NCBI GenBank assembly: GCA_022539475.1
Contig: VCMS01000090.1
Coordinates: forward strand, 62,001-126,000
Origin: Gracilaria domingensis
Lineage: Eukaryota; Rhodophyta; Florideophyceae; Gracilariales; Gracilariaceae
Reading direction: 5' to 3'
DNA: 64,000 bases
Part shown: positions 7,916 to 40,088 of the stretch, in pieces
Layout of the letters: each line of letters begins with the position of its first letter
How positions within the stretch are numbered: position 1 is the first letter of the stretch
The notes under the pieces: model-generated
The model's database searches: none
What the model saw: the letters and a program-made list of their open reading frames with translations, nothing else
Told to the model about the DNA's origin: nothing
Position numbers and translations under genes: made by a program

Positions 7916-7933
7916 TTCTAAGTCGGGAGACCA
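7916..7933 (-). other. Primer binding site of element A, tRNA-Tyr type
   Basis: The minus strand reads TGGTCTCCCGACTTAGAA two bases after the LTR end. Its complement ends in ...TCGGGAG-A-CCA with C at the position expected for residue 61. It implies a C1-G72 acceptor pair with A73, the hallmark of eukaryotic tRNA-Tyr (yeast tRNA-Tyr also ends CGGGAGA-CCA). Exactly the same 18-mer occurs in element B. Confidence 0.75.
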
Positions 7934-7935
7934 AT

Positions 7936-8690
7936 TGTTGTGCAAAACCCAGCGATGGGGAAAGACACGCAAAGGCGGTTCAGACCCTCTCTCAAGAGGC
8001 GAGCACAGCAGTAGAGCGCTCCCACAGGTACGACACGGCAATGCCGGGTGTAAGACCGGGGTCGACCCTTCCCAAGTAATGGAGGGAGCGAAGCGGCGAA
8101 GAAGAAGCGTCCAGCGGTAGAGAACACACGACACAAGTCGGCAGTAGCGTCACGTGCGTAGCACGCGGTACCCACGAGTGTGGCGATGACACGCGAGAGC
8201 GGTAATAGCCCACGCGAGTGTGTCGAGCCACGAACGGTATGCACCGGTACACCAAGTAGTGCTACCTGTATAACAGGGACAGAAATAAAGAAAACACACA
8301 CAAAGTAAACACGCGAAAGCGGTAGTGGTGTTAATGATGCCGCGAGGCGGATGATGAGCCCTGCACAAGGTGCCGACTCTCCGGGAGGAGGATATCGGTC
8401 ACCAAGGGTGAAACATCAGAGCCGAACACTCGGTTAGTCCGTTTACTTCCCCGACAATGGGTGCAGCTCAACCTACTAAGTAGTGTAGAGTGCCAACCCA
8501 CTGTCAAGCGGTGTAGCGAAAATATCTAGAATAAACATCTAAAATACCCCAACTAATGGGTGCAAACTTCCCACACGTGTGTGACCCACCGGCTAAGCCG
8601 TGCGCCTCATAACACTAATTCTAATATTAAGTATACCCAAGAATGGGCTGATCTCACCAGTTACTCATACTGTGTGCCACCACCTCCCGG
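7936..8690 (-). repeat. Element A 5' LTR, outer end approximate
   Basis: The inner end is set by the primer binding site: GCACAACA, then a 2-base spacer, then TGG. The outer end must lie before the RNase H-type coding sequence of element C resumes near 8,690. No second copy is in the window, so the boundary is inferred. Confidence 0.55.
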
Positions 8691-9201
8691 CATCGCCGTG
8701 CATGTTATGAATCGCATCAGCGAAGGAGTCCCGCAATCGCGTTGCACTACATTCAAGTCTCTTTAATGTTTCTTCCGGAACATGAACTGTGGTAATTTTC
8801 ATTAGTTTTGTAATTGTGTTTGCTGGCACATGATGAACTTCTTTTTCTTTTCGAGACAGTGCGTTTGCTACTGTATTAAGGTTCCCTTTTATATAGTTAA
8901 TTTCGTAATCGAATTCTTGCATGAACTCAAACCATCGTGCTTGCTTCCTTGACTGTAGATTTTGACTTTCTAAAGACTTAAGCGGGTGATGGTCTGAGAG
9001 TATCTTAAATTTTGAGCCATGTAAATATGGTCTCCATATTTCCAATGCGTATATAATAGCGAGTAGTTCTCTTTCATGTGTCGAATATTTTTGTTCTGCG
9101 GGGTTTAGCTTTCTTGATGCATATGCAACAGGACGACATCCTTTTTCATCTGTTTGTGTAAGGACTGTGCCTATTCCAGTTCCAGATGCATCACATGTTA
9201 A
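8691..9201 (-). pseudogene. Element C RNase H segment
   Basis: The minus-strand coding stretch carries the Ty3/gypsy RNase H signature: TCDASGTGIG at its start, YSTHERELLAIIYALEIWR in the middle, then LSDHHPLK and ANALSRK. It begins exactly at the outer end of the left LTR of element B, and the matching RT side lies beyond B at 17,261. It ends against element A with no recognisable integrase. Confidence 0.88.
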
Positions 9202-9626
9202 TGTAGTGCAGTGGGATGCACCTCCCGATGGTGCATAGTAGTAGTTTGTAGTAGTTAGTGTGCACAGGGTGCACCTCGGGTCCCACACGTGTAGGGTTGT
9301 GACAGTTGTCGTGTCGCCCTTCGGGACCCCCCTTATAGGTAGATAGTTTATTATTTTCGACACGTGGCTACTGCCCGTGGGAGGTGCACTTAAGCATCTC
9401 CCGCCGGGCAGAGCTCACCGTGGTAAACCTCAAGCACCCCCTAGCCGATTCTTTCATCGTCTAGTTTCCCACAAGGGTCATTCTACCGTCACTACCGGTA
9501 CTGCGCGCCTATCTCGCGCCCCGTTGTTAGCGTCCGTTGAGTGCTCCTTCGTCCCCGCTTGGGTGCTGCGCAATTTGTTCCTTTATCAGGGCATAGTACG
9601 TTGTCACGGCCAGTGGCTGTACTACA
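9202..9626 (+). repeat. Element B left (5') LTR
   Basis: It is 425 bp and starts TGTAGTGCAGTGG and ends GGCTGTACTACA, with 6-bp inverted ends TGTAGT/ACTACA. It is followed after two bases by the primer binding site. It differs from the right LTR at three positions, and at all three the tandem array at 19-28 kb matches the right LTR instead. Confidence 0.95.
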
Positions 9627-10796: not shown

Positions 10797-11640
10797 CTCC
10801 AAGCTCTGCTCTTCGACACGCAGAAGTATCAAATGTATGCTTCTGTCTCTCCCCCTTAATCTAACTCCTGACAAATCTAACATGACCTAATCAGGACGTT
10901 GTCACCACCGTCCTGGAACATGGATCGGTTCGGAACCCATATGGGACAAGGACTGGTCCTACACCTCTCGACTTGTCTCGTGCAGGTACCCTCATGTGGG
11001 AATCAATTACACTCGTTCCGCAAGTTAATCGAATCCCCATGTCACTCTGGGATCACCCTGTACGGGATACTCGCCCATCACTAACTGCCTTATTATGTTC
11101 TCGACAACGTTTTCCGGTTGCGAGGAACACCCTTCTCTGTGAACGTGCTTGTCCACTACTTGTTCCTTAAAGGAGAACAATCCTGGCTGGGACAGTTTGT
11201 TTTGTTCGTTGGACAACGTACACGTTTTCAGAGTCTTGACTACCCAACGGGACTCTTTCTATGCTCTACTCCACTTCTATTGGAGTTGTGCAGGCTTTTG
11301 CGCACTGTTTCCTTTCCGGTGAATCCGCTCACGCAGTGCGCTCGCCCAAGAAGGGGAGGGGCTGGTTGAACATGCGTTACGGTCGTGAAATAACCGAAAC
11401 GGTTCAAGCCCCAGTTTGGGAATCGAACTAATCTCAACCTGTTTTTCGTTGGTTCTTCGCATTAGTTTCTGCTTGAAAAGGACACCCTTCTGGGATTTAA
11501 TCTCTTTCCCTTGACTTTCTTGTCGGGCAACGCGGTTATTCTTTTCCGTGCTCCCTGATGGGCTTTCCTTTCTTTTTATCTATGACGAACCTTTTAGAAT
11601 CTTTGATATTCATACCAGGTATTCGGTCTATCCACGAAGT
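10797..11640 (+). other. Element B interior without recognisable coding
   Basis: This is where the end of gag and protease to RNase H would be expected in a full-length relative. No reverse transcriptase or protease motif is seen in any frame. GGGA-type palindromic motifs occur here too. Confidence 0.5.
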
Positions 11641-12337
11641 GCACTCATCTGAGACGGATGTACTTCCAATCCCATCGGGGGAGTTCCTGGAAGAGCAATC
11701 CCAAGACCCGTGGTATGTGGGTGTTACCGAGTCTGTCGGAAGGCCACACTTCCGCTTTGAGTACGACCATTATGGATTACTCCCGAGAACGTCATCCCTC
11801 GACGGTGCGATCCAACGCCTGGTCCCGGACACCCCACGGGAGCGCGTACTCTACTTGTCGCATTGCCCAAGATTGGCTGGTCACCCTGGAGGGAGAAGGA
11901 TGTGCATTACCCTCAAACGGGAGTTTTATTGGTCTTCTATGGCCAATGATGCCTATCGCACGGAGAAAGAGTGTCCCTCGTGCGCGGACATATTCCCATA
12001 CAGGGCTACTCAGTATCTGCTGACAGACAACGGACCGCAGTTCGTCGCGAAATTCTTTGAAGCCCTTTGCGGGGATCTAGGTTTGCGCCATTTGCTGACG
12101 GCGGCCTACCACCCGCAGACTAACGAGCAGGCGGAGCGTTTTAATCGAACCCTTGTGGGACGCCTTAGGCATTACGTGTCTGAGCACTGGCAAGACTGGA
12201 ATGATTTCGTCCAGCCCTTGGTCTTCGCGTACAACTCCCAGGTTCATAGAACCACGGGGACGACACCTTTTGACTTGGTGTTAACGCGACACCCACCTGG
12301 GATCGTCGTTGACACCCTGACCACCGCTATGGAGTAA
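11641..12337 (+). pseudogene. Element B integrase remnant
   Basis: The frame covering 11,558-12,337 carries the integrase zinc-finger region (LSHCPRLAGHPGGRR, then CPSCAD) and the distal core (LLTDNGPQF, YHPQTNEQAERFNRTL). It ends with the GPF-like region typical of chromovirus integrases (VHRTTGTTPFDLVLTR). It is a shortened relative of the element A integrase. Confidence 0.85.
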
Positions 12338-15900: not shown

Positions 15901-16834
15901 GTGGGATTGTGCTGGTATGGAATTGAGTGCTTCTCCGTGCTACGCTCGCGTTTGCTTTCCGCATGGGACTTGGCCAACCTCGGAGGTCAGGCCTAAGGAG
16001 GAGAGTTGGTACGGTAATTGGATGCACTGCACTGAGGGATACCAACAACTGACCATGGAGAGCAATCTAAACGACTACTCTCAGGAGCCTAGAGCCCACG
16101 CGTGCGCAATGGACAGTGACCCGTTGGGGAAGTGGAAACGTCATCGGGGCGTCGCCACGCGCGTGCTTATTATCGCGCTGGTTGCCCCATTCGGGATTTG
16201 ATGCTTGGGAAAGCACTGTGCCTTCTTGGTCTTGGTATTTTCGTACCCGCAGAGGATGCTTCCGCAGTTTACGCTTCTGTGGCCGGGTTTAGTGGTGTTA
16301 CTTCCTACCCTCGGGTTTATGGTCGTGCAACGCACGCGCGCGCTATCTCAGACCCGATTGGGGACATTCGCGTGTTGGAACATGGTTTATCCGCCGCGTG
16401 TGGCTTGACCTGTTCGGTCGACGCTGGGCCCGTCAGTGGGGACCCCGCGACACGCATTCGCCGTCATCGCCTACTGCCCAACAGGGATTCTTCTTACGTG
16501 TAATCCTTTCATGCGCCGCAGGATCACTGTTTCACCCGCCGTGGGAGAATGGCAAAATCGTAAGTTCGTTAACTTCTCGCGCTCACTCTTCGCCCAATTG
16601 GGATGGGTGACAAACGATGCCTCACCGTGTAGGCTGGACCATGTTGGTCGGTTCGTAACGCAGGTTGCCTGAGAGGAGTGGTCGTTGGAGCATCCCATCG
16701 CGCTCGTTGGTCACCCCAACGGGATCTTGGAGGATTGGAAGTTGGTGCTTCGCTGCGTTTCCGTTCGCGTTCGCTCCCTGCATGGGAAATGTTTGGCCAG
16801 CCTCGGGACGAGGCCAGGCCCAAGAAGGGGAGTC
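12904..16834 (+). other. Element B long 3' non-coding region with quasi-periodic CCC-N-GGGA motifs
   Basis: This is about 3.9 kb between the chromodomain and the 3' LTR with no supportable gene. It holds a long series of imperfect palindromes of the form CCC-N2..5-GGGA, mostly about 50-66 bases apart. Clear examples start their GGGA at 14,346, 14,540, 14,604, 15,141, 15,201, 15,506, 15,584, 15,705, 15,767, 15,845, 15,903 and 15,965. The last 313 bases (from 16,522) are the part copied into the tandem array. Confidence 0.7.
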
Positions 16835-17594
16835 TGTAGTGCAGTGGGATGCACCTCCCGATGGGTGCATAGTAGTAGTTTGTAGTAGTTAGTGTGCACA
16901 GGGTGCACCTCGGGTCCCACACGTGTAGGGTTGTGACAGTTGTCGTGTCGCCCTTCGGGACCCCCCTTATAGGTAGATAGTTTATTATTTTCGACACGTG
17001 GCTACTGCCCGTGGGAGGTGCACTTAAGCATCTCCCGCCGGGCAGAGCTCACCGTGGTAAACCTCAAGCACCCCCTAGCCGATTCTTTCATCGTCTAGTT
17101 TCCCACAAGGGTCATCCTACCGTCACTACCGGTACTGCGCGCCTATCTCGCGCCCCGTTGTTAGCGTCCGTTGAGTGCTCCTTCGTCCCCGCTTGGGTGC
17201 TGCGCAATTTGTTCCTTTATCAGGGCATAGTACGTTGTCACGGCCTGTGGCTGTACTACACTTAATTTATATGGTAACGATATATCAGCACATCTAAGTA
17301 TAGGTGTGTTGCTTAATTCTTTCTTTAATGTTTCAAATGCATTCTTTTCTTTCCCTTCCACTGAAAAGGTTTACTTTTCTTGGTTAGGTCAGTTAATGGG
17401 GCTGCTATTTTAGCAAAGTTTTTACAAATCTTCTGTAATAATTAGATATTCCTAGGAAGCTTTGTATTTCCGTGACGTTAGTCGGTTCTCCCCAGTTTTG
17501 TATAGCCATAGTCTTCTTTGGGTCAATTTTTATCCCATCTACTGTGATGATGCGTCCCAAATAATCGATCGACTGTTTTAAAAACTTACATTTT
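16522..17594 (+). other. Donor interval of the tandem array (1,073 bp)
   Basis: The interval comprises the last 313 bases of element B's interior, the right LTR (426) and the adjoining 334 bases of element C. Its length equals the short array unit exactly. Both ends carry GA (16,522-16,523 and 17,595-17,596), and the array joint reads ACATTTT-GA-TCACTG. That is the C sequence up to GA followed by the B sequence from GA. Confidence 0.9.
16835..17260 (+). repeat. Element B right (3') LTR
   Basis: It is 426 bp, TGTAGT...ACTACA. The element C sequence resumes immediately after it at 17,261. This copy, not the left LTR, is the one represented nine times in the array. Confidence 0.95.
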
Positions 17595-18562
17595 GAAAGC
17601 TTTCCGTATAACCTGTGTTCTCTTAGTATTTGAAAAACAATTCTCAATTGTTTCAAATGTTCCTCTTTTGTTCTACTATATATTAGTATATCATCTAGAT
17701 AGACTAATACAAACTTATCTAGATATTTCCTGAATATGATGTTCATTAATGTTTGAGAACATCCTGGAGCTCCTGTTAATCTAAATGGTGTAACCATATA
17801 CTCGAACTGGCCGTAGCGAGTTCGGAACGCTGTTTTCTTTACATCATATTCTCTTATTCTTTTTTGATGGTACCCTTGTCTCAGATCTATTGCTGAGAAG
17901 TACTTTGCTCCTTGTACTTGATCCCAGACTTCATCAATACGAGGAAATGGCATTTGATTCTTTATTGTTTGTTTATTCAGTGCCCTATAGTCTACACACA
18001 TTCGTAGACTAACGTCTCTCTTCTTTGCAAATAATACAGGGCTACCCTATGGACTTATACTAGGCCTAATAAATCCATGTTCCATGAGCTCATTAACCTG
18101 GCATCTCATTTCTTCTAACTCAGGTTTTGACAATTTATACATGGGTCCCATTTTTGGTCTTGCTTCTGGTACTAAGTCTATCTTCATTTCCACCTCTCTA
18201 TGAGGGGGTAACATTTTTGGTAATTCTTCAGGGAATACGTCTTGGAACTCTTCCAAGAGTGACTTCAATTTTGGATCCAACATCTCTTCTTCATATTTCT
18301 TTTCTTTCTCACCGGTACCGGGTGACTTAATACTTATTTGGTATACCTTACACTTCTTTTTTCTCACAAGCCGTGAAAGTTGCTTACTAGATAACATAAA
18401 AGATAAAAATGAGCTGTATTTATGCTTACCTGTTCCTTCCTCTGCGTCCAGAGTAACTAAACTTTCTTCTTGACGTATGGTGATACTTCTCTTCCTCCAA
18501 TCTATCATTGGGTTTTCGCTTACTAACCACGTCATTCCTAGTATAATATCGTAGGTGATCAA
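17261..18562 (-). pseudogene. Element C reverse transcriptase segment
   Basis: Minus-strand coding carries LVPEARPKMGPMYKLS, then MCVDYRALNKQTIKN and DLRQGYHQ, then the catalytic VYLDDILIYS and FLGISNYYRRF. This is the standard order of a Ty3/gypsy reverse transcriptase. The distal 334 bases (17,261-17,594) occur eight more times, inverted, in the array. The segment is broken in several places and ends at element B. Confidence 0.9.
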
Positions 18563-19183
18563 GTCTACAATAAACGGTTTAATTTTAAAAGAAGCATTTC
18601 CAATACTAGTGGGAGGCTATTAATACTCGCACAGATAGGAACAAGAATTTTGTCCCACAACTCGGCTTGGTACTGGCTTTTTCGATACTTCAATCCTAAT
18701 CGAACGGCAAAGCTTTGGACATGACTATGCCCTCGCAGCCACTGTCTATTAATACTTTACAGTGCTGGTACTCTTTCTGACTTAGTACCCTTTCCTGAAG
18801 TTCTAGTAAAAGCGTTTTTCGCTTTCCTACTCTTCTTGAGTTCCATATCTTGACGATATTTTCTTCTTTCTTTCGATTTCTACCTCGTATATCCTTTTTA
18901 AATAATGTCGTAAATTCAATTCCTTTACTTCTCTCCTGAGGATGCGCTAATGTCTCCTTCGGCACCAGCGCCATACCTAGTTTTCTGTTCCATTACTACT
19001 CACGTTTTGACCAATTCTCCGTTGATCATGATTTCTAGCCATACAGTTCTTTCTTTTACATATAAAACACAATTTTTCTCTTAAACATCTTCTCTTCTCA
19101 GGAGGACTCATACATTTTTGATTTCCGAAATTAAAAGTCCCAATCTGCATAGGCGTTGGCCCTTGCCTTGTATTATTATTACT
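18563..19183 (-). pseudogene. Element C protease region and distal gag with zinc knuckle remnant
   Basis: The frame at 18,696-18,974 ends in a retropepsin-like LIDSGCEG near 18,760-18,735. Above it, 19,183-18,990 encodes a gag tail with a Cys/His cluster (CFICKRKNC, then ARNH) that looks like a zinc knuckle. It begins at the left edge of the tandem array, next to the target duplication TTACT (19,179-19,183). Confidence 0.75.
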
Positions 19184-19609
19184 TGTAGTACAGCCACAGG
19201 CCGTGACAACGTACTATGCCCTGATAAAGGAACAAATTGCGCAGCACCCAAGCGGGGACGAAGGAGCACTCAACGGACGCTAACAACGGGGCGCGAGATA
19301 GGCGCGCAGTACCGGTAGTGACGGTAGGATGACCCTTGTGGGAAACTAGACGATGAAAGAATCGGCTAGGGGGTGCTTGAGGTTTACCACGGTGAGCTCT
19401 GCCCGGCGGGAGATGCTTAAGTGCACCTCCCACGGGCAGTAGCCACGTGTCGAAAATAATAAACTATCTACCTATAAGGGGGGTCCCGAAGGGCGACACG
19501 ACAACTGTCACAACCCTACACGTGTGGGACCCGAGGTGCACCCTGTGCACACTAACTACTACAAACTACTACTATGCACCCATCGGGAGGTGCATCCCAC
19601 TGCACTACA
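19184..19609 (-). repeat. Left terminal LTR of the array
   Basis: It is 426 bp, TGTAGT...ACTACA in inverted orientation relative to element B, starting right after TTACT. The first unit alone keeps the donor base at one position in the B-interior part (CTCAGGCA versus CTCGGGCA in later units). Confidence 0.92.
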
Positions 19610-22600
19610 GACTCCCCTTCTTGGGCCTGGCCTCGTCCCGAGGCTGGCCAAACATTTCCCATGCAGGGAGCGAACGCGAACGGAAACGCAGCGAAGCACC
19701 AACTTCCAATCCTCCAAGATCCCGTTGGGGTGACCAACGAGCGCGATGGGATGCTCCAACGACCACTCCTCTCAGGCAACCTGCGTTACGAACCGACCAA
19801 CATGGTCCAGCCTACACGGTGAGGCATCGTTTGTCACCCATCCCAATTGGGCGAAGAGTGAGCGCGAGAAGTTAACGAACTTACGATTTTGCCATTCTCC
19901 CACGGCGGGTGAAACAGTGATCAAAATGTAAGTTTTTAAAACAGTCGATCGATTATTTGGGACGCATCATCACAGTAGATGGGATAAAAATTGACCCAAA
20001 GAAGACTATGGCTATACAAAACTGGGGAGAACCGACTAACGTCACGGAAATACAAAGCTTCCTAGGAATATCTAATTATTACAGAAGATTTGTAAAAACT
20101 TTGCTAAAATAGCAGCCCCATTAACTGACCTAACCAAGAAAAGTAAACCTTTTCAGTGGAAGGGAAAGAAAAGAATGCATTTGAAACATTAAAGAAAGAA
20201 TTAAGCAACACACCTATACTTAGATGTGCTGATATATCGTTACCATATAAATTAAGTGTAGTACAGCCACAGGCCGTGACAACGTACTATGCCCTGATAA
20301 AGGAACAAATTGCGCAGCACCCAAGCGGGGACGAAGGAGCACTCAACGGACGCTAACAACGGGGCGCGAGATAGGCGCGCAGTACCGGTAGTGACGGTAG
20401 GATGACCCTTGTGGGAAACTAGACGATGAAAGAATCGGCTAGGGGGTGCTTGAGGTTTACCACGGTGAGCTCTGCCCGGCGGGAGATGCTTAAGTGCACC
20501 TCCCACGGGCAGTAGCCACGTGTCGAAAATAATAAACTATCTACCTATAAGGGGGGTCCCGAAGGGCGACACGACAACTGTCACAACCCTACACGTGTGG
20601 GACCCGAGGTGCACCCTGTGCACACTAACTACTACAAACTACTACTATGCACCCATCGGGAGGTGCATCCCACTGCACTACAGACTCCCCTTCTTGGGCC
20701 TGGCCTCGTCCCGAGGCTGGCCAAACATTTCCCATGCAGGGAGCGAACGCGAACGGAAACGCAGCGAAGCACCAACTTCCAATCCTCCAAGATCCCGTTG
20801 GGGTGACCAACGAGCGCGATGGGATGCTCCAACGACCACTCCTCTCGGGCAACCTGCGTTACGAACCGACCAACATGGTCCAGCCTACACGGTGAGGCAT
20901 CGTTTGTCACCCATCCCAATTGGGCGAAGAGTGAGCGCGAGAAGTTAACGAACTTACGATTTTGCCATTCTCCCACGGCGGGTGAAACAGTGATCAAAAT
21001 GTAAGTTTTTAAAACAGTCGATCGATTATTTGGGACGCATCATCACAGTAGATGGGATAAAAATTGACCCAAAGAAGACTATGGCTATACAAAACTGGGG
21101 AGAACCGACTAACGTCACGGAAATACAAAGCTTCCTAGGAATATCTAATTATTACAGAAGATTTGTAAAAACTTTGCTAAAATAGCAGCCCCATTAACTG
21201 ACCTAACCAAGAAAAGTAAACCTTTTCAGTGGAAGGGAAAGAAAAGAATGCATTTGAAACATTAAAGAAAGAATTAAGCAACACACCTATAACCTATACT
21301 TAGATGTGCTTATATATCGTTACCATATAAATTAAGTGTAGTACAGCCACAGGCCGTGACAACGTACTATGCCCTGATAAAGGAACAAATTGCGCAGCAC
21401 CCAAGCGGGGACGAAGGAGCACTCAACGGACGCTAACAACGGGGCGCGAGATAGGCGCGCAGTACCGGTAGTGACGGTAGGATGACCCTTGTGGGAAACT
21501 AGACGATGAAAGAATCGGCTAGGGGGTGCTTGAGGTTTACCACGGTGAGCTCTGCCCGGCGGGAGATGCTTAAGTGCACCTCCCACGGGCAGTAGCCACG
21601 TGTCGAAAATAATAAACTATCTACCTATAAGGGGGGTCCCGAAGGGCGACACGACAACTGTCACAACCCTACACGTGTGGGACCCGAGGTGCACCCTGTG
21701 CACACTAACTACTACAAACTACTACTATGCACCCATCGGGAGGTGCATCCCACTGCACTACAGACTCCCCTTCTTGGGCCTGGCCTCGTCCCGAGGCTGG
21801 CCAAACATTTCCCATGCAGGGAGCGAACGCGAACGGAAACGCAGCGAAGCACCAACTTCCAATCCTCCAAGATCCCGTTGGGGTGACCAACGAGCGCGAT
21901 GGGATGCTCCAACGACCACTCCTCTCGGGCAACCTGCGTTACGAACCGACCAACATGGTCCAGCCTACACGGTGAGGCATCGTTTGTCACCCATCCCAAT
22001 TGGGCGAAGAGTGAGCGCGAGAAGTTAACGAACTTACGATTTTGCCATTCTCCCACGGCGGGTGAAACAGTGATCAAAATGTAAGTTTTTAAAACAGTCG
22101 ATCGATTATTTGGGACGCATCATCACAGTAGATGGGATAAAAATTGACCCAAAGAAGACTATGGCTATACAAAACTGGGGAGAACCGACTAACGTCACGG
22201 AAATACAAAGCTTCCTAGGAATATCTAATTATTACAGAAGATTTGTAAAAACTTTGCTAAAATAGCAGCCCCATTAACTGACCTAACCAAGAAAAGTAAA
22301 CCTTTTCAGTGGAAGGGAAAGAAAAGAATGCATTTGAAACATTAAAGAAAGAATTAAGCAACACACCTATAACCTATACTTAGATGTGCTTATATATCGT
22401 TACCATATAAATTAAGTGTAGTACAGCCACAGGCCGTGACAACGTACTATGCCCTGATAAAGGAACAAATTGCGCAGCACCCAAGCGGGGACGAAGGAGC
22501 ACTCAACGGACGCTAACAACGGGGCGCGAGATAGGCGCGCAGTACCGGTAGTGACGGTAGGATGACCCTTGTGGGAAACTAGACGATGAAAGAATCGGCT

Positions 22601-25600
22601 AGGGGGTGCTTGAGGTTTACCACGGTGAGCTCTGCCCGGCGGGAGATGCTTAAGTGCACCTCCCACGGGCAGTAGCCACGTGTCGAAAATAATAAACTAT
22701 CTACCTATAAGGGGGGTCCCGAAGGGCGACACGACAACTGTCACAACCCTACACGTGTGGGACCCGAGGTGCACCCTGTGCACACTAACTACTACAAACT
22801 ACTACTATGCACCCATCGGGAGGTGCATCCCACTGCACTACAGACTCCCCTTCTTGGGCCTGGCCTCGTCCCGAGGCTGGCCAAACATTTCCCATGCAGG
22901 GAGCGAACGCGAACGGAAACGCAGCGAAGCACCAACTTCCAATCCTCCAAGATCCCGTTGGGGTGACCAACGAGCGCGATGGGATGCTCCAACGACCACT
23001 CCTCTCGGGCAACCTGCGTTACGAACCGACCAACATGGTCCAGCCTACACGGTGAGGCATCGTTTGTCACCCATCCCAATTGGGCGAAGAGTGAGCGCGA
23101 GAAGTTAACGAACTTACGATTTTGCCATTCTCCCACGGCGGGTGAAACAGTGATCAAAATGTAAGTTTTTAAAACAGTCGATCGATTATTTGGGACGCAT
23201 CATCACAGTAGATGGGATAAAAATTGACCCAAAGAAGACTATGGCTATACAAAACTGGGGAGAACCGACTAACGTCACGGAAATACAAAGCTTCCTAGGA
23301 ATATCTAATTATTACAGAAGATTTGTAAAAACTTTGCTAAAATAGCAGCCCCATTAACTGACCTAACCAAGAAAAGTAAACCTTTTCAGTGGAAGGGAAA
23401 GAAAAGAATGCATTTGAAACATTAAAGAAAGAATTAAGCAACACACCTATAACCTATACTTAGATGTGCTTATATATCGTTACCATATAAATTAAGTGTA
23501 GTACAGCCACAGGCCGTGACAACGTACTATGCCCTGATAAAGGAACAAATTGCGCAGCACCCAAGCGGGGACGAAGGAGCACTCAACGGACGCTAACAAC
23601 GGGGCGCGAGATAGGCGCGCAGTACCGGTAGTGACGGTAGGATGACCCTTGTGGGAAACTAGACGATGAAAGAATCGGCTAGGGGGTGCTTGAGGTTTAC
23701 CACGGTGAGCTCTGCCCGGCGGGAGATGCTTAAGTGCACCTCCCACGGGCAGTAGCCACGTGTCGAAAATAATAAACTATCTACCTATAAGGGGGGTCCC
23801 GAAGGGCGACACGACAACTGTCACAACCCTACACGTGTGGGACCCGAGGTGCACCCTGTGCACACTAACTACTACAAACTACTACTATGCACCCATCGGG
23901 AGGTGCATCCCACTGCACTACAGACTCCCCTTCTTGGGCCTGGCCTCGTCCCGAGGCTGGCCAAACATTTCCCATGCAGGGAGCGAACGCGAACGGAAAC
24001 GCAGCGAAGCACCAACTTCCAATCCTCCAAGATCCCGTTGGGGTGACCAACGAGCGCGATGGGATGCTCCAACGACCACTCCTCTCGGGCAACCTGCGTT
24101 ACGAACCGACCAACATGGTCCAGCCTACACGGTGAGGCATCGTTTGTCACCCATCCCAATTGGGCGAAGAGTGAGCGCGAGAAGTTAACGAACTTACGAT
24201 TTTGCCATTCTCCCACGGCGGGTGAAACAGTGATCAAAATGTAAGTTTTTAAAACAGTCGATCGATTATTTGGGACGCATCATCACAGTAGATGGGATAA
24301 AAATTGACCCAAAGAAGACTATGGCTATACAAAACTGGGGAGAACCGACTAACGTCACGGAAATACAAAGCTTCCTAGGAATATCTAATTATTACAGAAG
24401 ATTTGTAAAAACTTTGCTAAAATAGCAGCCCCATTAACTGACCTAACCAAGAAAAGTAAACCTTTTCAGTGGAAGGGAAAGAAAAGAATGCATTTGAAAC
24501 ATTAAAGAAAGAATTAAGCAACACACTTATACTTAGATGTGCTGATATATCGTTACCATATAAATTAAGTGTAGTACAGCCACAGGCCGTGACAACGTAC
24601 TATGCCCTGATAAAGGAACAAATTGCGCAGCACCCAAGCGGGGACGAAGGAGCACTCAACGGACGCTAACAACGGGGCGCGAGATAGGCGCGCAGTACCG
24701 GTAGTGACGGTAGGATGACCCTTGTGGGAAACTAGACGATGAAAGAATCGGCTAGGGGGTGCTTGAGGTTTACCACGGTGAGCTCTGCCCGGCGGGAGAT
24801 GCTTAAGTGCACCTCCCACGGGCAGTAGCCACGTGTCGAAAATAATAAACTATCTACCTATAAGGGGGGTCCCGAAGGGCGACACGACAACTGTCACAAC
24901 CCTACACGTGTGGGACCCGAGGTGCACCCTGTGCACACTAACTACTACAAACTACTACTATGCACCCATCGGGAGGTGCATCCCACTGCACTACAGACTC
25001 CCCTTCTTGGGCCTGGCCTCGTCCCGAGGCTGGCCAAACATTTCCCATGCAGGGAGCGAACGCGAACGGAAACGCAGCGAAGCACCAACTTCCAATCCTC
25101 CAAGATCCCGTTGGGGTGACCAACGAGCGCGATGGGATGCTCCAACGACCACTCCTCTCGGGCAACCTGCGTTACGAACCGACCAACATGGTCCAGCCTA
25201 CACGGTGAGGCATCGTTTGTCACCCATCCCAATTGGGCGAAGAGTGAGCGCGAGAAGTTAACGAACTTACGATTTTGCCATTCTCCCACGGCGGGTGAAA
25301 CAGTGATCAAAATGTAAGTTTTTAAAACAGTCGATCGATTATTTGGGACGCATCATCACAGTAGATGGGATAAAAATTGACCCAAAGAAGACTATGGCTA
25401 TACAAAACTGGGGAGAACCGACTAACGTCACGGAAATACAAAGCTTCCTAGGAATATCTAATTATTACAGAAGATTTGTAAAAACTTTGCTAAAATAGCA
25501 GCCCCATTAACTGACCTAACCAAGAAAAGTAAACCTTTTCAGTGGAAGGGAAAGAAAAGAATGCATTTGAAACATTAAAGAAAGAATTAAGCAACACACC

Positions 25601-27802
25601 TATAACCTATACTTAGATGTGCTTATATATCGTTACCATATAAATTAAGTGTAGTACAGCCACAGGCCGTGACAACGTACTATGCCCTGATAAAGGAACA
25701 AATTGCGCAGCACCCAAGCGGGGACGAAGGAGCACTCAACGGACGCTAACAACGGGGCGCGAGATAGGCGCGCAGTACCGGTAGTGACGGTAGGATGACC
25801 CTTGTGGGAAACTAGACGATGAAAGAATCGGCTAGGGGGTGCTTGAGGTTTACCACGGTGAGCTCTGCCCGGCGGGAGATGCTTAAGTGCACCTCCCACG
25901 GGCAGTAGCCACGTGTCGAAAATAATAAACTATCTACCTATAAGGGGGGTCCCGAAGGGCGACACGACAACTGTCACAACCCTACACGTGTGGGACCCGA
26001 GGTGCACCCTGTGCACACTAACTACTACAAACTACTACTATGCACCCATCGGGAGGTGCATCCCACTGCACTACAGACTCCCCTTCTTGGGCCTGGCCTC
26101 GTCCCGAGGCTGGCCAAACATTTCCCATGCAGGGAGCGAACGCGAACGGAAACGCAGCGAAGCACCAACTTCCAATCCTCCAAGATCCCGTTGGGGTGAC
26201 CAACGAGCGCGATGGGATGCTCCAACGACCACTCCTCTCGGGCAACCTGCGTTACGAACCGACCAACATGGTCCAGCCTACACGGTGAGGCATCGTTTGT
26301 CACCCATCCCAATTGGGCGAAGAGTGAGCGCGAGAAGTTAACGAACTTACGATTTTGCCATTCTCCCACGGCGGGTGAAACAGTGATCAAAATGTAAGTT
26401 TTTAAAACAGTCGATCGATTATTTGGGACGCATCATCACAGTAGATGGGATAAAAATTGACCCAAAGAAGACTATGGCTATACAAAACTGGGGAGAACCG
26501 ACTAACGTCACGGAAATACAAAGCTTCCTAGGAATATCTAATTATTACAGAAGATTTGTAAAAACTTTGCTAAAATAGCAGCCCCATTAACTGACCTAAC
26601 CAAGAAAAGTAAACCTTTTCAGTGGAAGGGAAAGAAAAGAATGCATTTGAAACATTAAAGAAAGAATTAAGCAACACACCTATAACCTATACTTAGATGT
26701 GCTTATATATCGTTACCATATAAATTAAGTGTAGTACAGCCACAGGCCGTGACAACGTACTATGCCCTGATAAAGGAACAAATTGCGCAGCACCCAAGCG
26801 GGGACGAAGGAGCACTCAACGGACGCTAACAACGGGGCGCGAGATAGGCGCGCAGTACCGGTAGTGACGGTAGGATGACCCTTGTGGGAAACTAGACGAT
26901 GAAAGAATCGGCTAGGGGGTGCTTGAGGTTTACCACGGTGAGCTCTGCCCGGCGGGAGATGCTTAAGTGCACCTCCCACGGGCAGTAGCCACGTGTCGAA
27001 AATAATAAACTATCTACCTATAAGGGGGGTCCCGAAGGGCGACACGACAACTGTCACAACCCTACACGTGTGGGACCCGAGGTGCACCCTGTGCACACTA
27101 ACTACTACAAACTACTACTATGCACCCATCGGGAGGTGCATCCCACTGCACTACAGACTCCCCTTCTTGGGCCTGGCCTCGTCCCGAGGCTGGCCAAACA
27201 TTTCCCATGCAGGGAGCGAACGCGAACGGAAACGCAGCGAAGCACCAACTTCCAATCCTCCAAGATCCCGTTGGGGTGACCAACGAGCGCGATGGGATGC
27301 TCCAACGACCACTCCTCTCGGGCAACCTGCGTTACGAACCGACCAACATGGTCCAGCCTACACGGTGAGGCATCGTTTGTCACCCATCCCAATTGGGCGA
27401 AGAGTGAGCGCGAGAAGTTAACGAACTTACGATTTTGCCATTCTCCCACGGCGGGTGAAACAGTGATCAAAATGTAAGTTTTTAAAACAGTCGATCGATT
27501 ATTTGGGACGCATCATCACAGTAGATGGGATAAAAATTGACCCAAAGAAGACTATGGCTATACAAAACTGGGGAGAACCGACTAACGTCACGGAAATACA
27601 AAGCTTCCTAAGAATATCTAATTATTACAGAAGATTTGTAAAAACTTTGCTAAAATAGCAGCCCCATTAACTGACCTAACCAAGAAAAGTAAACCTTTTC
27701 AGTGGAAGGGAAAGAAAAGAATGCATTTGAAACATTAAAGAAAGAATTAAGCAACACACCTATACTTAGATGTGCTGATATATCGTTACCATATAAATTA
27801 AG

Positions 27803-28228
27803 TGTAGTACAGCCACAGGCCGTGACAACGTACTATGCCCTGATAAAGGAACAAATTGCGCAGCACCCAAGCGGGGACGAAGGAGCACTCAACGGACGCT
27901 AACAACGGGGCGCGAGATAGGCGCGCAGTACCGGTAGTGACGGTAGGATGACCCTTGTGGGAAACTAGACGATGAAAGAATCGGCTAGGGGGTGCTTGAG
28001 GTTTACCACGGTGAGCTCTGCCCGGCGGGAGATGCTTAAGTGCACCTCCCACGGGCAGTAGCCACGTGTCGAAAATAGTAAACTATCTATCTATAAGGGG
28101 GGTCCCGAAGGGCGACACGACAACTGTCACAACCCTACACGTGTGGGACCCGAGGTGCACCCTGTGCACACTAACTACTACAAACTACTACTATGCACCC
28201 ATCGGGAGGTGCATCCCACTGCACTACA
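27803..28228 (-). repeat. Right terminal LTR of the array, with private variants
   Basis: It is 426 bp and ends at the second TTACT. Near 28,070-28,090 it has two substitutions absent from the other eight array LTRs and from both LTRs of element B. This suggests that this end derives from a different LTR copy already present at the site. Confidence 0.9.
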
Positions 28229-28899
28229 TTACTATTGTAAGGTTTTGAACGAAATTGGCTTCCACTCCAACTTTGTTCATTTCTGAATAAACAATCTATT
28301 TTATCGGCAATTTTCATTGCTTCTTTAACCGTAACTGGTTCAGATCTTTCAACTTTGATTCTTGTTCTCATCCTTAAACCTTGGCTATAATGGAAGATTT
28401 GTTCAGCTTCCGTCATAGTCGGAACTTGTAGCCACCATTTCGTGAACTCCTGGTTATACGACCGTACAGTGATTAATTTACCAATATGCTTTATCGTGCT
28501 TAACATTTTTCTAGCTGTTAATTCTCTGTTAACAGGTTCGAAGTAGTCCAATAATTTTCTAGAGAACTCTTCAAAAGACATAATTATACTTTCATTAATT
28601 GAGATCAATTCCCACCATTGGAGAGCATCTCCTGTCATATAGCTTACTGCATATTTTATTTTACTTTGGTCATCTGGTGCAGGATTGATTCCTCTAAAAA
28701 AATTGTCTAAACTTTTTATCCAACTTCGAGCAAATTTCCCGGAGAATTTATCTGGTTTTCCGGTTTTCAGGAAAGATTTCGTTTGTGAATCTCTGTAATT
28801 TACTAATGCTTGGTTAGTTACTTGCAGCTGTTGCTGTAATGAACCAACTTGTTGCTGAAGCTGTTGGATAATTTGGACTTGCTGGGAGTCAGTGTTCAT
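28229..28899 (-). pseudogene. gag: Element C gag, N-terminal part
   Basis: The minus-strand frame starts at an ATG at 28,899. It has a Gln-rich coiled-coil start (QQLQQQVGSLQQQLQ), then the gag core KFSGKFARSWIKSLDNFF, DALQWWELIS and FEEFSRKLLDYFEP. This is the Ty3/gypsy retrotransposon gag fold. It breaks off at the array edge, and the gag tail continues beyond the array at 19,183. Confidence 0.88.
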
Positions 28900-29120
28900 T
28901 TTTCCTTTCTCTTTTTTTGGGAATTACATTTACGCAATAATCAATTGGTTCTTTATTTCTTTTTGTATTGTTCTTTTTTCTTTTTTTTGAGTTTTTCAAT
29001 TTTCTCAGTACTATATAGTTGTAATATTTTGCTCACTCTTAATTATTACTGCTTTCCTTTGAGACTACGGACTACCTTGCTAATGGTGGAGGCCTTTTCC
29101 TTCTCTGGCTTTACAACAAT
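28900..29120 (-). other. Element C leader remnant
   Basis: AT-rich and A-rich on the coding (minus) strand. An ACTATATAGT motif lies at about 29,010-29,019. No LTR end or primer binding site was recognised. Confidence 0.4.
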
Positions 29121-30600: not shown

Positions 30601-30923
30601 TACAATGTACGTCACGATGCACCGTGTACAACGACGACGTGGCTATTATTGAACACGCGGCGCGGCACAGGTGGGCAGCAAAAAGGTAGCCCGCTGTATC
30701 GAGGCGCCGGCCAGCGCGAGCGCCGTTCAAATCGCGAGCGCCGGTCAAATCGCGAGCGCCGGTCAAATCGCGGCGCCGGCCACGTACCAGCACCCACGCC
30801 GTCAGCGATCAGAGCCCTTGGCGTCGTTCCTGGCTTGCCTCTCCTTATTCGTCGCTAGCCCTTTGGCATCCACGCCGCCGTCGTTCATGGCTCGCACCGT
30901 TCTCAGTCGCACTGCACATTGCG
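30601..30923 (+). repeat. Left terminal inverted repeat of the MULE
   Basis: It is the inverted copy of 46,549-46,871, with scattered substitutions. It contains a short internal run of the unit GCGAGCGCCGGTCAAATC (three copies here), which differs slightly in the right repeat. Confidence 0.88.
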
Positions 30924-32599: not shown

Positions 32600-32858
32600 T
32601 GATAAGAAGGACATATAACGTATCATGTAAGTGTTGTGAATTTGGTATCTCACGTTGATACAGTAGGGCAAATCTCCCAAATAGGTATTGTTGTGGAAGC
32701 TACATGCGTGGGGTACAAGATGAAGTAGGTGATAGACTCCCTGTGATAGTGGTCTACTTAGGGTATCGGTTTAGCAGGGTTTACGATCCCCATATATATC
32801 AGGAGAACCAACTCAGAGTTGGGAGTAAAAGTCTCGGCGCTTAGCCGTCTTGCGATCA
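32600..32858 (+). repeat. Outer copia left LTR
   Basis: 259 bp, with a TATATAT box near 32,793 followed by the short 3' portion. It abuts AGGGC on its outer side. Confidence 0.94.
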
Positions 32859-32859
32859 G

Positions 32860-32873
32860 TGGTAGCATCGCGC
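32860..32873 (+). other. Primer binding site of the outer copia, initiator tRNA-Met type
   Basis: TGGTAGCATCGCGC lies one base after the LTR. The complement ends CGATGCT-A-CCA, implying an A1-U72 acceptor pair with A73, the hallmark of eukaryotic initiator tRNA-Met, the usual copia primer. Confidence 0.65.
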
Positions 32874-32912
32874 TCCCTGATTCAGCCAGCCTCGTCAACC
32901 CAATCTCCGAAG

Positions 32913-33839
32913 ATGGAAGAAGACGGCCAGAGACGCATTCCTCGCTTCTACGCGAAACGAGGGGAACATTTCATTCTTTGGCAAATGCGCTTTGAGGCGC
33001 TACTGGAGTCAAAGGAATTACTTGAAATGGTAACAAAATACCAATTGCAGGATCGTGAAACATCTGCGCTCGGAGATGAGCAACAACTCAAACTTTCTAA
33101 GGCAAGAATGTTTCTAGTACAAGCGCTAGGTGAAAAACCGCTTCGTACGATTGCAACAGATCGCCGCAACCCGTACATAATGTACTCGAAGTTGAAGGAA
33201 AGGTGTGCAACAGTTAAAAAATCAACTCGTGTGCAACTCCAAACGGAATTGCATCAGAAGAGGTTCACAAACTCTTCTACGATGTCCGAGTACATTGATG
33301 GAATGGAATCTATCTTTAATCGTCTAAATGCCATGGATTCTGCCGTTCAGGAATCAATGCAGGTAGCTATATTACTTCCAAGCTTTGGGAGTGCAGCAGA
33401 ATCTCCCTACGGAGCAGTAATTAGCGCACTGCAGACGCTTAAAGATTCTGAACTAACATGGGAGTCTGCAACAGCCCGTTTACTTCAAGAGTATTCTATT
33501 CGGCACTCTTCATCAGCAATGCAGACGGACGAGGGCAATGACAGGACTGAGCGAGCCTTGAGAACAAAATCCAGCATCAAATGCTTTAATTGCGGAAAGT
33601 TTGGACATTATAAGAGAGAATGTCGTAAGAGTAAGGAGAGAAACAGAGACCGCAACGGCGTGCAACAGTTTGCCCTGGTGACAAGAAGCAGTGAACAGAA
33701 TTCAGTGTTCATTATCGACTCAGGAGCTATCCGACACATGGTGAACAACCCTACTTTGGCCAGGAACTTCCGTCCAGCAACCCCTAGGACCATTACATTA
33801 GGTGATGGAAGGAGTGTTGTTTCAACTACGGTCGGAAAC
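32913..33839 (+). CDS. gag: Outer copia gag and start of protease
   Basis: The start is set at the ATG at 32,913; the upstream in-frame ATG at 32,850 lies inside the LTR. The gag core contains FILWQMRFEALLESKELLEMV and later TMSEYIDGMESIFNRL. A zinc knuckle CFNCGKFGHYKREC starts near residue 224. The protease active site FIIDSGAIRHM follows near 33,712. The coding stretch is interrupted at 33,839 by the inner copia, and its pol part resumes after 40,083. Confidence 0.88.
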
Positions 33840-34428
33840 TGTAGATTTTTCTATGATTACATGGGAGGATTTGTATGGACATGCAATACTTATATATGCA
33901 TAAGCAGCAATGCATATCAGATATTGATTTTGTAATGTTGGAGAGATGTCGATTGCATGGCGGATTGGAAAGTGAACAAGAAATAAGTTAGGCAGTAATC
34001 GGTATACAAATCAGAAGAGTACATGAAAGAGATAATATATAGAACAGTAGAGTTGTCTTAGAAAGTAGTATAAATAGGGTGGGTGCGGATACTACATGAT
34101 TGACCTCCTCGGACAATCATCAAGTAAAAGCAAATAACATCCAACTATCAGGAACCATCTCCGATGCGGGAGACCGCGCAACTGAGTTGCAACTACTTGT
34201 AGTAAGTTAACGAACCACGAAGCGTTATACACTAACCTTGCGTTTGTATCGACCTCTACTGCGTGTGGAATCGACAGGTCCGTTCTACCGCAGCACCATT
34301 GGGTGCCGCATACCGTTCGCATCTGTGAGAATAAAGGACGTACGAAAACAGCCTCACTGGGGGCCGTGGATACTGATCTTTATTGAATTGTCACCGGCTT
34401 CGAGCCGATTGAAGCCCAGGTTTCGACA
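33840..34428 (+). repeat. Inner copia left LTR
   Basis: 589 bp; TATAAATAGGGTGGG near 34,069-34,083 is a good TATA box. No conventional TGG primer site follows; the interior begins GTTATAACTGTGCAGC. Confidence 0.94.
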
Positions 34429-34487
34429 GTTATAACTGTGCAGCTGTTAAGGTTAACCGCAATTGTAACATTTACCTGGACTACGTA

Positions 34488-37400
34488 ATGACAGACGAGG
34501 TATCCGGAATAGCACACGGTGAACTTAGCGAGGCTCACCAAGTCCAAGCGCTAAACGCAGATGCGTTGAGAGATTTTAGCAATGCACTGTACAACGCAAT
34601 CGGGGATCCAGATCTCCCGCCACCGGATGCATCAGAAGAAGAAATGAGAAAGTATAGAGATGAAGTAGAAGCATACGGAAAAGAAATGTTGGCAACATTC
34701 GAAAGTACCAAGCTCCAGAATGAAGCATTGTGGTTTGAGTTTACCTCTGTCTTTAGGCCAGCAAGTATTCCCAATATGTCTCGATTTTTGGTAATCAAAT
34801 GGATCGATTTCCTTACGAACCGAGGAGTATGGGTGAAACGAAAGCAAGGGTACCCGCGAAAGCGCGCACTCGGCGAATGCCTTATGCAGAATAGATTTGT
34901 ACCTACAGGTACTGGAGAACCAGCATCTCATGGAAACATTGTTGCTAATCAAACCGGCCATCAGTATGGACAAGACAGAAACGATAATGCTGAAGCCGTA
35001 GTTCTACATCCGCAGAACCCACGAAGCACTTGTAATGAACAACATGAGGAAGTTTTTGTAGAACCTGCGAACCGAAGTGTAAGAGACGAAGTGCCACAAA
35101 TCATTCGTCAAGAACCCACGGAACTCAGCCGTGAGGCTCAGAGAAGCAGATTGCAAGATGTTCTCCCCAACATCTGCTCAAACCTGCCGGACAGGATTAC
35201 TCAATCGAAGGGTTACAATTCAGGTCAACCTCCTGATGAGAACGAGAAGAACTCTGGAAAGGGAACGCATAGTCTTTTGAAGCTCTGTCAAGGCCGCCCC
35301 CGATTCTCTGGACGTCTTCAAGACGATTTACAAGGTACGCTCGAATTCTACGATGCAATGGCAAAGAGATGCCGTCTTACAGACATTGAGAAGGCTGAAT
35401 ATCTCCCAACCATGCTTGATGGTGCCGCATTGAAATTCTACCTCAGGAACTACAGAGATGGAGATCCATACGAAGGAATACTTCAAAAATTTATCGACAA
35501 CTACATGAATCCCGAAGAGAAGAACAGGGCATTACTTGTCTGGCAATCGATGCGTCTTTCTCAAGCGATGCGCGAGAGTCCGGAGAAGAGCGAACTAGCA
35601 GTTTTCATGTCCTTCTATGAGAAGCTTGTCAATCTCCAACAGCAATTGGACCCAGCATACCGCAACGACAATTTTCTTCGCGACCAACTCATCGTTTCTA
35701 TCGATATGAAAAAAATTACTCAAGCGTTGCGAGAGAGAATCCCCTCTACTTCTCAAGAAGCCCGAAGTCGGATCGCCACCTTCCTATCAAGTGACCCAAG
35801 ATCGGCTGACAGCTTTGTTGTTTCCTCAGATAGGAGAAAGACCCGTGACCACTTTGCAAATTACAGTTTAGGACACAAATATGGAGGCGATGCTAGGAAA
35901 CATTTGAAAGGCCACCACAGGAAAAGAATGGACTCAAATTCCAGGAAACTGTCGTCCAGATGGATTTCAGGGAAACGAGGTTGCTACGTTTGTGGCGAAA
36001 ATCATCTTGCACGCACAAGACACAGCCCACAGGAGGTCAAGGCTGCCATAGACAGGCTGAAAAGCAAGAGACCATCGGCTTACATCACTATCGAGGACCT
36101 AGCATATATCGTTGATGAAGTCACCGGAGATGAGGACAGTAATGTTGATGAACACGACGCCAACGTCGTTTACTCAAGCGATAGCGATTCAGACAGCGAA
36201 TGGTCAGAAGAAGACGCAGCCTATATCATCGAAGACGACATGAACCTGCATGAAACGGACGAAGTACTTCTGGCAAATGCGTCTCTGGTCCATGGTATCG
36301 GATTTCACAGAGATATGAACCAAGCCCTAGCCACAATGGAAGCAGAACTCCGAGAAGGTGAGCGAGATGAATTCAAAGGACTCTACATCGACACCTGTGC
36401 AAACCGTTCCAGCGTTATGTCATATGCTCAATACAAGGCGTACTGTGAACAATTCGACGTACCCTGCCAGATTGACCGAAATAACGTCAAGCGCTTACGA
36501 GGAATTGGCGGTAGTAGCCAACCACTTGGTACTGCGACAATACCTGTACCGTTTAAGGATCTAAACCTGGTGATAGATATTACCTTTCAGATAGTTCAGG
36601 ACAAGGTACCATCTCTTCTGAGCATGAAGGATATGATTGAAAATGGTTTGGAGATCAGTTTGCAGCGAAGGGAGGTAATGTACAAGCATTTGCGTCAAGA
36701 CCTTACGTTTCGGAACTATTTTCTCATACACAATTGGAAACGAGAGGACCTGACGTACTCACTGTACACGGAAACAGAACTGCGCAAACTTCACAGAGTG
36801 TTTGGTCATCCCAGCGTGAACGCATTTACAAACCTTCTGAAGAGAGCGCGACCAGATGAGATGGATGCCAAAGTCCGAGAAGCTATAGAAGATCTGACAA
36901 AATCCTGTGCTACTTGTGCTGTGAACGCCCCAAGGCCAAGAAGATTCAAGCTCACAGTTGGTACCGACGATCTGAGATTCAACCACATCGTAGCAGTGGA
37001 TATCATGTATGTCAACAACAAACCAGTATTCCATGCCGTCGACGAAGCTACTCATTTCAATTCCGCCCTATTTCTGAAGCGAGTGACATCTTCTGAAGTC
37101 TGGAAGGCTTCTCTACGTTGCTGGTCCCGTCTATACCTTGGTCCACCTGATTTTTTACGCATTGATCAAGGCAGCAACTTTATTTCCAAAGAGTTTCATG
37201 AGCTATCGGAAGCAGAAGGCATAACAGTTCTTGAGGCCCCAATTGAGTCACCTTCAACAATGACACATGTCGAGCGCTACCACGGGCCACTACGTGTAGC
37301 ATATACTAAGATACGTGAATCACTCCCTCGCGCAGAAAGAGACGCCGACTGTCTACAAATGGCGGTTAAATCTATCAACGATACTCTCGGACCAGAAGGA

Positions 37401-39452: not shown

Positions 39453-39494
39453 GACTATGTTTGACAAATTTTGTCAAAAGAAAAGTTTTTGGAG

Positions 39495-40083
39495 TGTAGA
39501 TTTTTCTATGATTACATGGGAGGATTTGTATGGACATGCAATACTTATATATGCATAAGCAGCAATGCATATCAGATATTGATTTTGTAATGTTGGAGAG
39601 ATGTCGATTGCATGGCGGATTGGAAAGTGAACAAGAAATAAGTTAGGCAGTAATCGGTATACAAATCAGAAGAGTACATGAAAGAGATAATATATAGAAC
39701 AGTAGAGTTGTCTTAGAAAGTAGTATAAATAGGGTGGGTGCGGATACTACATGATTGACCTCCTCGGACAATCATCAAGTAAAAGCAAATAACATCCAAC
39801 TATCAGGAACCATCTCCGATGCGGGAGACCGCGCAACTGAGTTGCAACTACTTGTAGTAAGTTAACGAACCACGAAGCGTTATACACTAACCTTGCGTTT
39901 GTATCGACCTCTACTGCGTGTGGAATCGACAGGTCCGTTCTACCGCAGCACCATTGGGTGCCGCATACCGTTCGCATCTGTGAGAATAAAGGACGTACGA
40001 AAACAGCCTCACTGGGGGCCGTGGATACTGATCTTTATTGAATTGTCACCGGCTTCGAGCCGATTGAAGCCCAGGTTTCGACA
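39495..40083 (+). repeat. Inner copia right LTR
   Basis: 589 bp, the same as the left LTR by eye, preceded by the purine-rich tract CAAAAGAAAAG near 39,475-39,485. Confidence 0.94.
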
Positions 40084-40088
40084 GAAAC

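What the first reader, a model, noticed from the sequence alone, without database searches (positions are those of the whole stretch)
19184..28228. Tandem array whose unit is a DNA circle cut from the B/C junction
Seen: eight units of 1,073 or 1,080 bp, each B LTR + 313 bp of B interior + 334/341 bp of C. The donor interval 16,522-17,594 is contiguous in the genome and exactly 1,073 bp. In the array its two ends are joined on a 2-bp GA match. The LTR variants are those of B's right LTR, which is the LTR inside the donor interval. Inference: end-joining made a circle of one LTR plus flanking host and element DNA, and it was amplified by rolling-circle copying or repeated recombination. Known retrotransposon circles are usually one-LTR or two-LTR forms of the element itself. 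A circle carrying LTR, element 3' end and flanking host DNA that then forms an LTR-bounded array is unusual.
Basis: partly seen in the sequence, partly recalled or inferred. Interest (0 to 1): 0.95.

Follow-up and report, generated by a model that had tools for sequence, protein, structure and literature searches.

The report
Tandem array grown in an LTR
A one-kilobase piece of DNA spanning the edge of a jumping gene was joined head to tail, apparently captured at a second copy of that jumping gene's terminal repeat, and multiplied to eight units, showing in unusually readable form how mobile elements can seed new tandem repeats.

Summary
The array is real. Window 19184-28228 holds nine LTRs and eight spacers (spacing 1073 or 1080 bp), with the same joint in 8 of 8 spacers. 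It copies the interval 16522-17594, 1.9 kb away: one spacer is identical to it, while the best other C copy is 90% identical. The joint was found nowhere else in the 77.9-Mb assembly.

It therefore occupies an LTR insertion site, in opposite orientation to B. I read it as a head-to-tail copy of the B/C junction captured by LTR homology into a second, older LTR (inferred), then expanded stepwise by recombination.

A circle is a plausible vehicle but is not shown: in-place duplication plus two LTR-LTR flips gives the same product. The 2-bp match at the joint is near chance (P = 0.15). Canonical retrotransposition is disfavoured: no primer-site motif, unexpected LTR variants. TSD-flanked tandem LTR arrays and LTR-derived satellites are known; a unit of LTR plus host flank, with its donor intact beside it, is a new variant.

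The parts
16522..17594 (+). Donor interval: 313 bp of the 3' end of element A/B, its right LTR, 334 bp of flanking element C
   Evidence: 1073 bp; one array spacer identical to it; contiguous in other B and C copies
9202..9626 (+). Left LTR (A) of the nested element A/B; three private changes
   Evidence: followed by ACTGGTCTCCCGACT, probably the primer-binding site (inference)
16835..17260 (+). Right LTR (B) of element A/B; the LTR inside the donor
   Evidence: flanks GTTAA / CTTAA, one mismatch; empty site in 4 of 4 C copies examined
19179..19183 (+). Target-site duplication TTACT, left copy
   Evidence: 9 of 9 C relatives examined align across the site without the array
19184..19609 (-). 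Array LTR at the left end (3' end of the array in LTR orientation), identical to B
19610..20256 (-). Founder-like spacer: C334 joined to B313, identical to the donor at every position
20257..27155 (-). Seven inner LTRs, all identical to B, and six spacers (five with a 7-bp duplication plus 17286A, one with 17303A), all six with derived C at donor position 16670
27156..27802 (-). Spacer next to the outer LTR: private change at 17452, no 7-bp duplication, derived C at 16670
27803..28228 (-). Outer LTR (5' end of the array in LTR orientation) with two differences from B, at LTR positions 139 and 151; candidate remnant of the older target LTR
28229..28233 (+). Target-site duplication TTACT, right copy
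19922..19923 (-). C|B joint of the first unit (also at 20995, 22075, 23155, 24235, 25308, 26388 and 27468)
28171..28920 (-). gag ORF of host element C (Ty3_capsid, Retrotrans_gag); its low-coordinate end reads into the array
17405..18616 (-). Protease and reverse transcriptase ORFs of C, between the two insertions
   Evidence: RVP_2, RVT_1
8668..9201 (-). RNase H part of C on the far side of A/B, showing that A/B split C
   Evidence: RT_RNaseH

Best explanation
The array is the product of DNA-level recombination at an LTR. Steps: (1) element A/B inserted into the Ty3-like element C (shown). (2) A second insertion of the same LTR sub-lineage entered C 1.9 kb away in opposite orientation, making the TTACT duplication, and was present as a solo LTR (inferred). 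(3) One end-to-end joint was made between 17594 and 16522, giving a head-to-tail copy of B313-LTR-C334 (the joint is shown; how it was made is not). (4) This copy was taken up at the second LTR through homology of the 426-bp LTR, giving LTR-C334|B313-LTR inside the old target-site duplication (inferred). (5) Units were added stepwise by unequal exchange or gene conversion between LTR-bearing units, reaching eight (inferred from nested variants). The confidence is for this shared core; of it I give about 0.36 to a small circle as vehicle of steps 3-4, 0.27 to gap repair or break-induced replication with a template switch, and 0.09 to in-place duplication with LTR-LTR flips.
For: Perfect 5-bp TSD and exact LTR ends at both borders; 9 of 9 C relatives examined align across the site without the array. 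One spacer is identical to the local donor, while the best other C copy is 90%, so the copy came from this locus. LTR position 300A is in A, B and nine of nine array LTRs and in 0 of 19 others. The only two LTR differences in the array both lie in the outer LTR, as expected if it keeps part of an older target. The spacer variants are absent from the donor, from 7 of 7 other B copies (position 16670) and from 4 of 4 other C copies (the rest), so they arose inside the array, and they are nested. The family leaves TSD-flanked solo LTRs: the C26 copy has GGGTC on both sides. The circle version of the model reproduces the observed order. Precedents: speculation that circular DNA can recombine with a genomic solo LTR (PMC4751563, section 16 read); a micro-homology circle that became a chromosomal tandem array in yeast (PMC4352087, passages).
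Against: No allele with only the target LTR was seen; the target is inferred. Apart from two positions in the outer LTR all array LTRs equal B, so the target must have been a near-identical sister or have been converted. 139A occurs in 2 of 19 other LTRs, so it may be recurrent, and both outer changes could post-date the array. No circle was observed. A 2025 survey argues that its plant tandem LTR arrays came from single insertions (PMC11899658, abstract). Copy number is untested by reads.
Confidence: 0.72

Rival explanations
1. A 1073-bp DNA circle was cut or copied from the B/C junction by end-joining, amplified in one go by rolling-circle copying, and integrated as a ready-made array.
For: One contiguous donor, one joint repeated 8 of 8 times, host flank included. 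A circle recombining into an LTR gives the observed order. A yeast precedent exists (PMC4352087, passages).
Against: Variants are nested rather than scattered on identical units: one donor-identical spacer, seven sharing 16670C, five of these sharing 17286A plus a 7-bp duplication, so copying went on after founding. The TSD calls for an LTR target or an integrase step. Joint microhomology is uninformative (P = 0.149). The donor is intact, so simple excision without a remaining copy is excluded.
Confidence: 0.1
2. In-place tandem duplication of 16522-17594 at the B/C junction, expansion there, then two recombination flips between B's LTR and the inverted LTR 1.9 kb away moved the units to the other LTR. 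No circle. (A sub-case of the core explanation; its odds lie inside the 0.72.)
For: Gives exactly the observed order and target-site duplications. B's LTR and the array LTRs are inverted and 1.9 kb apart.
Against: Needs two flips and transfer of all units, leaving none at the donor; simpler only if the transfer happened with one unit.
Confidence: 0.09
3. A chimeric RNA (read-through from B's right LTR into C, joined by template switching to the 3' end of A/B RNA) was reverse-transcribed and integrated as a small LTR element, which then expanded.
For: Perfect 5-bp TSD, exact LTR ends, and the B 3' end directly before the LTR. Plant tandem LTR arrays have been read as single insertions (PMC11899658, abstract and passages).
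Against: ACTGGTCTCCCGACT follows the LTR in A and, with one change in five of them, in 7 of 19 other copies; the other 12 look like right-hand LTRs (11) or a solo LTR (1). It is absent here: the array LTRs run into CTTAATTTATATGG. A's RNA would give the 3' LTR A's 412A if the event post-dates A's changes, and the array has T; other family RNAs would give 300G, and the array has A.
Confidence: 0.1
4. Assembly artefact: wrong unit number or a misplaced repeat.
For: Arrays of near-identical 1-kb units are hard to assemble; no reads could be examined.
Against: Unit-specific variants, perfect TSD and sensible borders on both sides; no N in the window; no second, near-identical contig of this C region appeared (best other copies 90%).
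Confidence: 0.08

Closest known systems
Tandem LTR-retrotransposon structures of rice and other plants (PMC11899658; outline with abstract, passages and section 10 seen)
   Same: LTRs alternate with internal segments, the array starts and ends with an LTR, and 10 of the 28 clear rice cases have perfect 5-bp TSDs.
   Different: All 28 contain regions encoding retrotransposon domains, and the two loci described in the passages have two internal regions. Here the spacer is a chimera of host flank and element 3' end, and there are eight.
CRM1TR / CRM4TR tandem repeats of maize (PMC3648361; abstract and discussion read)
   Same: Tandem repeats born from an LTR plus neighbouring DNA through an illegitimate joint; growth by recombination at the LTR (their model: LTR-UTR~LTR, then gene conversion).
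   Different: Entirely derived from the element, and in or near centromeres. Here about half of each spacer is flanking DNA and the donor lies intact beside the array.
Cassandra TRIM arrays (PMC7215508; abstract and discussion read)
   Same: Long arrays of LTR plus short internal domain, up to 12 repeats.
   Different: The internal domain belongs to the element; formation is ascribed to LTR-LTR recombination or template switching.
Sobo satellite of wild potato (seen only as cited in the discussion of PMC3648361)
   Same: Monomer combines LTR-like sequence with other genomic DNA.
   Different: 4.7-kb monomer over about 360 kb; the citing passage mentions no intact donor.
Recombination of Ty circles with a solo LTR in yeast (PMC4751563; passages and section 16 read)
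   Same: LTR as a homology dock for circular DNA.
   Different: A speculation in that paper; most circles it reports are whole Ty elements.

Membership tests
Tandem LTR-retrotransposon structure | Alternating LTRs and internal segments, starting and ending with an LTR | tested here: met
   Nine LTRs, eight spacers, exact LTR ends
Tandem LTR-retrotransposon structure | 5-bp TSD around the whole array | tested here: met
   TTACT on both sides; array absent from 9 of 9 C relatives examined
Tandem LTR-retrotransposon structure | Internal segments are element interior with coding domains | tested here: not met
   Each spacer is 334/341 bp of C flank + 313 bp of the B 3' end; so it is built like one but is not a plain member
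LTR-retrotransposon insertion made in one step by reverse transcription | Primer-binding site after the 5' LTR | tested here: not met
   The motif that follows the LTR in A and 7 of 19 other copies is absent from the array; that this motif is the primer site is inference
Circle-derived tandem array | Head-to-tail joint of a contiguous donor | tested here: met
Circle-derived tandem array | Circular intermediate exists | not testable with these tools
   No reads; a non-circular route gives the same product
Ty3/gypsy (host element C) | Ty3-type gag, then protease, RT and RNase H | tested here: met
   Pfam Ty3_capsid, RVP_2, RVT_1, RT_RNaseH in that order on the minus strand
Ty3/gypsy (host element C) | Integrase after RNase H | tested here: inconclusive
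   Three ORFs beyond RNase H (5411-7549, 7550-8149, 7918-8415) gave no Pfam match

The most novel reading that the evidence does not exclude
Solo LTRs act as homology docks that capture small circles or template-switched copies carrying LTR plus host DNA, turning retrotransposon insertion sites into nurseries of new satellites made partly of host DNA, without any RNA step.
Probability: 0.35. Interest if true: 0.62.

Novelty: new variant of a known kind. Interest (0 to 1): 0.47.

Why it matters
A survey of TSD-flanked tandem LTR arrays favours single insertion in its abstract, but its discussion leaves complex insertion and recombination both open (PMC11899658). Because this array's spacer carries traceable host flank and lacks the family's post-LTR motif, it points to DNA-level recombination for at least one such array. 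The donor lies intact beside it, so the birth of a satellite-like repeat can be read base by base and tested in related strains.

Tried and rejected
Chance: rejected; kilobase repeats at 99-100% identity. Donor elsewhere: rejected; full-length joint matches lie only here and the next C copy is 90%. Microhomology as proof of end-joining: weak. Other arrays of this LTR with short units: no second LTR within 1.5 kb in 19 of 19 other copies examined; only 40 of 109 candidates were scored, and I read loci for 19 of the 29 scored hits outside C90. mis-oriented minus-strand loci; its table was discarded and redone. In one search the B313 comparison dropped rows below a score cut-off: 7 other copies were kept (two of them, L036 and L037, near-identical duplicates), the rest being left LTRs, a solo LTR, or right-hand LTRs too diverged. 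For C variants 4 of the 22 hits outside donor and array were compared. The first empty-site test was uninformative for 2 of 4 loci; it was repeated with 9 of the 14 other hits, and 9 of 9 align across the site, several with gaps or low identity there. Organism: not identified; 78 Mb would fit the red alga Gracilaria domingensis (size seen in a passage of PMC10388701), but no call tests this. A protein search with C's gag gave 19 unnamed matches and no organism. Literature searches for a similar array; one search returned nothing, and none of the titles and abstract openings listed by the others described this case, but I did not read most of those papers and the open library lacks most subscription journals. 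Odds mended after rechecking: the vehicle shares had summed to more than the core, and the one-shot circle rival overlapped it; they are now 0.36, 0.27 and 0.09 inside 0.72, and 0.1 for the one-shot rival.
Full report
What is there. The window lies in contig 90 of an unnamed assembly of 77.9 Mb in 680 contigs, taken to be a eukaryote from its retroelements. A Ty3-like element, here C, runs on the minus strand: gag at 28171-28920, protease and reverse transcriptase at 18616-17405, RNase H at 9201-8668; no integrase was recognised in three further ORFs. C is split twice. Element A/B (LTRs 9202-9626 and 16835-17260; an integrase-like ORF at 11501-12337) sits between reverse transcriptase and RNase H. 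The array 19184-28228 sits between gag and protease.

The array. It has nine LTRs of 426 bp and eight spacers of 647 or 654 bp. Each spacer is 334 or 341 bp of C, starting exactly at the B insertion point, joined to the last 313 bp of B. The order reproduces the contiguous interval 16522-17594 head to tail, on the opposite strand. The joint is the same in 8 of 8 spacers. A 131-bp probe across it gave 23 hits in the genome, of which 8 are full length and all 8 lie in this array. One spacer is identical to the donor and the best other C copy is 90%. The donor is therefore this locus.

The overlooked feature. The array begins and ends at exact LTR ends and is flanked by TTACT on both sides. Nine of 9 C relatives examined align across the site without the array (several have small gaps or low identity there). 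The array thus occupies an LTR insertion site. A/B itself has flanks GTTAA/CTTAA and an empty site in 4 of 4 C copies examined.

LTR variants. A differs from B at three positions (29, 282, 412); B has the states of 18, 19 and 17 of the 19 other LTRs, so A is the changed one. Position 300A is shared by A, B and nine of nine array LTRs; 19 of 19 others have G. Eight of nine array LTRs are identical to B; the outer one has two differences. One of these (151C) is in 0 of 19 other LTRs, the other (139A) in 2 of 19. This fits an outer LTR that keeps part of an older target, but it could also be later mutation.

Spacer variants. The spacer at 19610-20256 equals the donor at every position. Seven of 8 have C at donor position 16670, where the donor and 7 of 7 other B copies have T. 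Five of 8 also have 17286A and a 7-bp duplication; one has 17303A and one 17452T. Four of 4 other C copies compared have the donor state at these sites and no duplication. So the array was founded from donor-state DNA and grew in more than one round. The donor and the founder-like spacer still match perfectly while A's LTR has three private changes, so the event is probably younger than the A/B insertion; but B's LTR has no private change either, numbers are small, and gene conversion could distort this.

How it arose. Three DNA routes would give the same product: a circle recombining into an LTR; gap repair or break-induced replication with one template switch; and in-place duplication followed by two flips between inverted LTRs. 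The first and third were checked with tokens; the second is argued, not simulated. All need one illegitimate joint and homology of the LTR. The 2-bp match at the joint arises by chance with P = 0.149. Canonical reverse transcription is disfavoured because the motif ACTGGTCTCCCGACT, which follows the LTR in A and (with one change in five of them) in 7 of 19 other copies, is absent, and because the expected LTR states are not found. I therefore favour LTR docking with stepwise growth (0.72), with the circle as the likeliest single vehicle (about half of that).

Comparison. TSD-flanked tandem LTR arrays are reported as frequent in rice; the abstract favours single insertion, the discussion leaves insertion and recombination both open (PMC11899658, outline, passages and section 10 seen). 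LTR-derived tandem repeats in maize were ascribed to an illegitimate joint followed by gene conversion (PMC3648361, abstract and discussion read). Cassandra arrays reach 12 repeats (PMC7215508, abstract and discussion read). Recombination of circular DNA with a solo LTR was speculated on for yeast (PMC4751563, section 16 read), and a yeast circle probably formed on an 8-nucleotide micro-homology became a chromosomal array (PMC4352087, passages seen). The present array differs in that about half of each spacer is host flank and the intact donor lies 1.9 kb away. It is a new variant of a known kind.

Limits. No reads, no other strains, no named organism. Genome searches scored only part of the LTR candidates (40 of 109). 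The target LTR is inferred, not seen.

Noticed in passing
33840-40083: Copia-like element with terminal repeats of about 589 bp that are 100% identical, apparent TSD GAAAC (33835-33839, 40084-40088; read by eye) and one open 1679-aa frame (RVT_2, rve): probably a very recent insertion.
   Followed up: partly
32600-43413: Second copia-like element that hosts the first: terminal repeats of about 260 bp at 99.2%, apparent TSD AGGGC on both sides (by eye), gag on one side of the inner insertion and integrase and RVT_2 on the other.
   Followed up: partly
30601-30923 and 46550-46871: Inverted repeats of about 323 bp, 94% identical, each holding three to four copies of a 17-18-bp tandem motif.
   Followed up: no
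54498-55076: GC-rich 46-bp tandem repeat, 12.7 copies, overlapping open frames.
   Followed up: no
L036 and L037 (contigs 309 and 96): Two LTR-family copies that are 99.9% identical over 3426 bp including host flanks: segmental duplication or uncollapsed haplotypes.
   Followed up: no
L042 (contig 26, 346075-346499): Solo LTR of the same family with GGGTC on both sides, showing that this family leaves TSD-flanked solo LTRs.
   Followed up: partly
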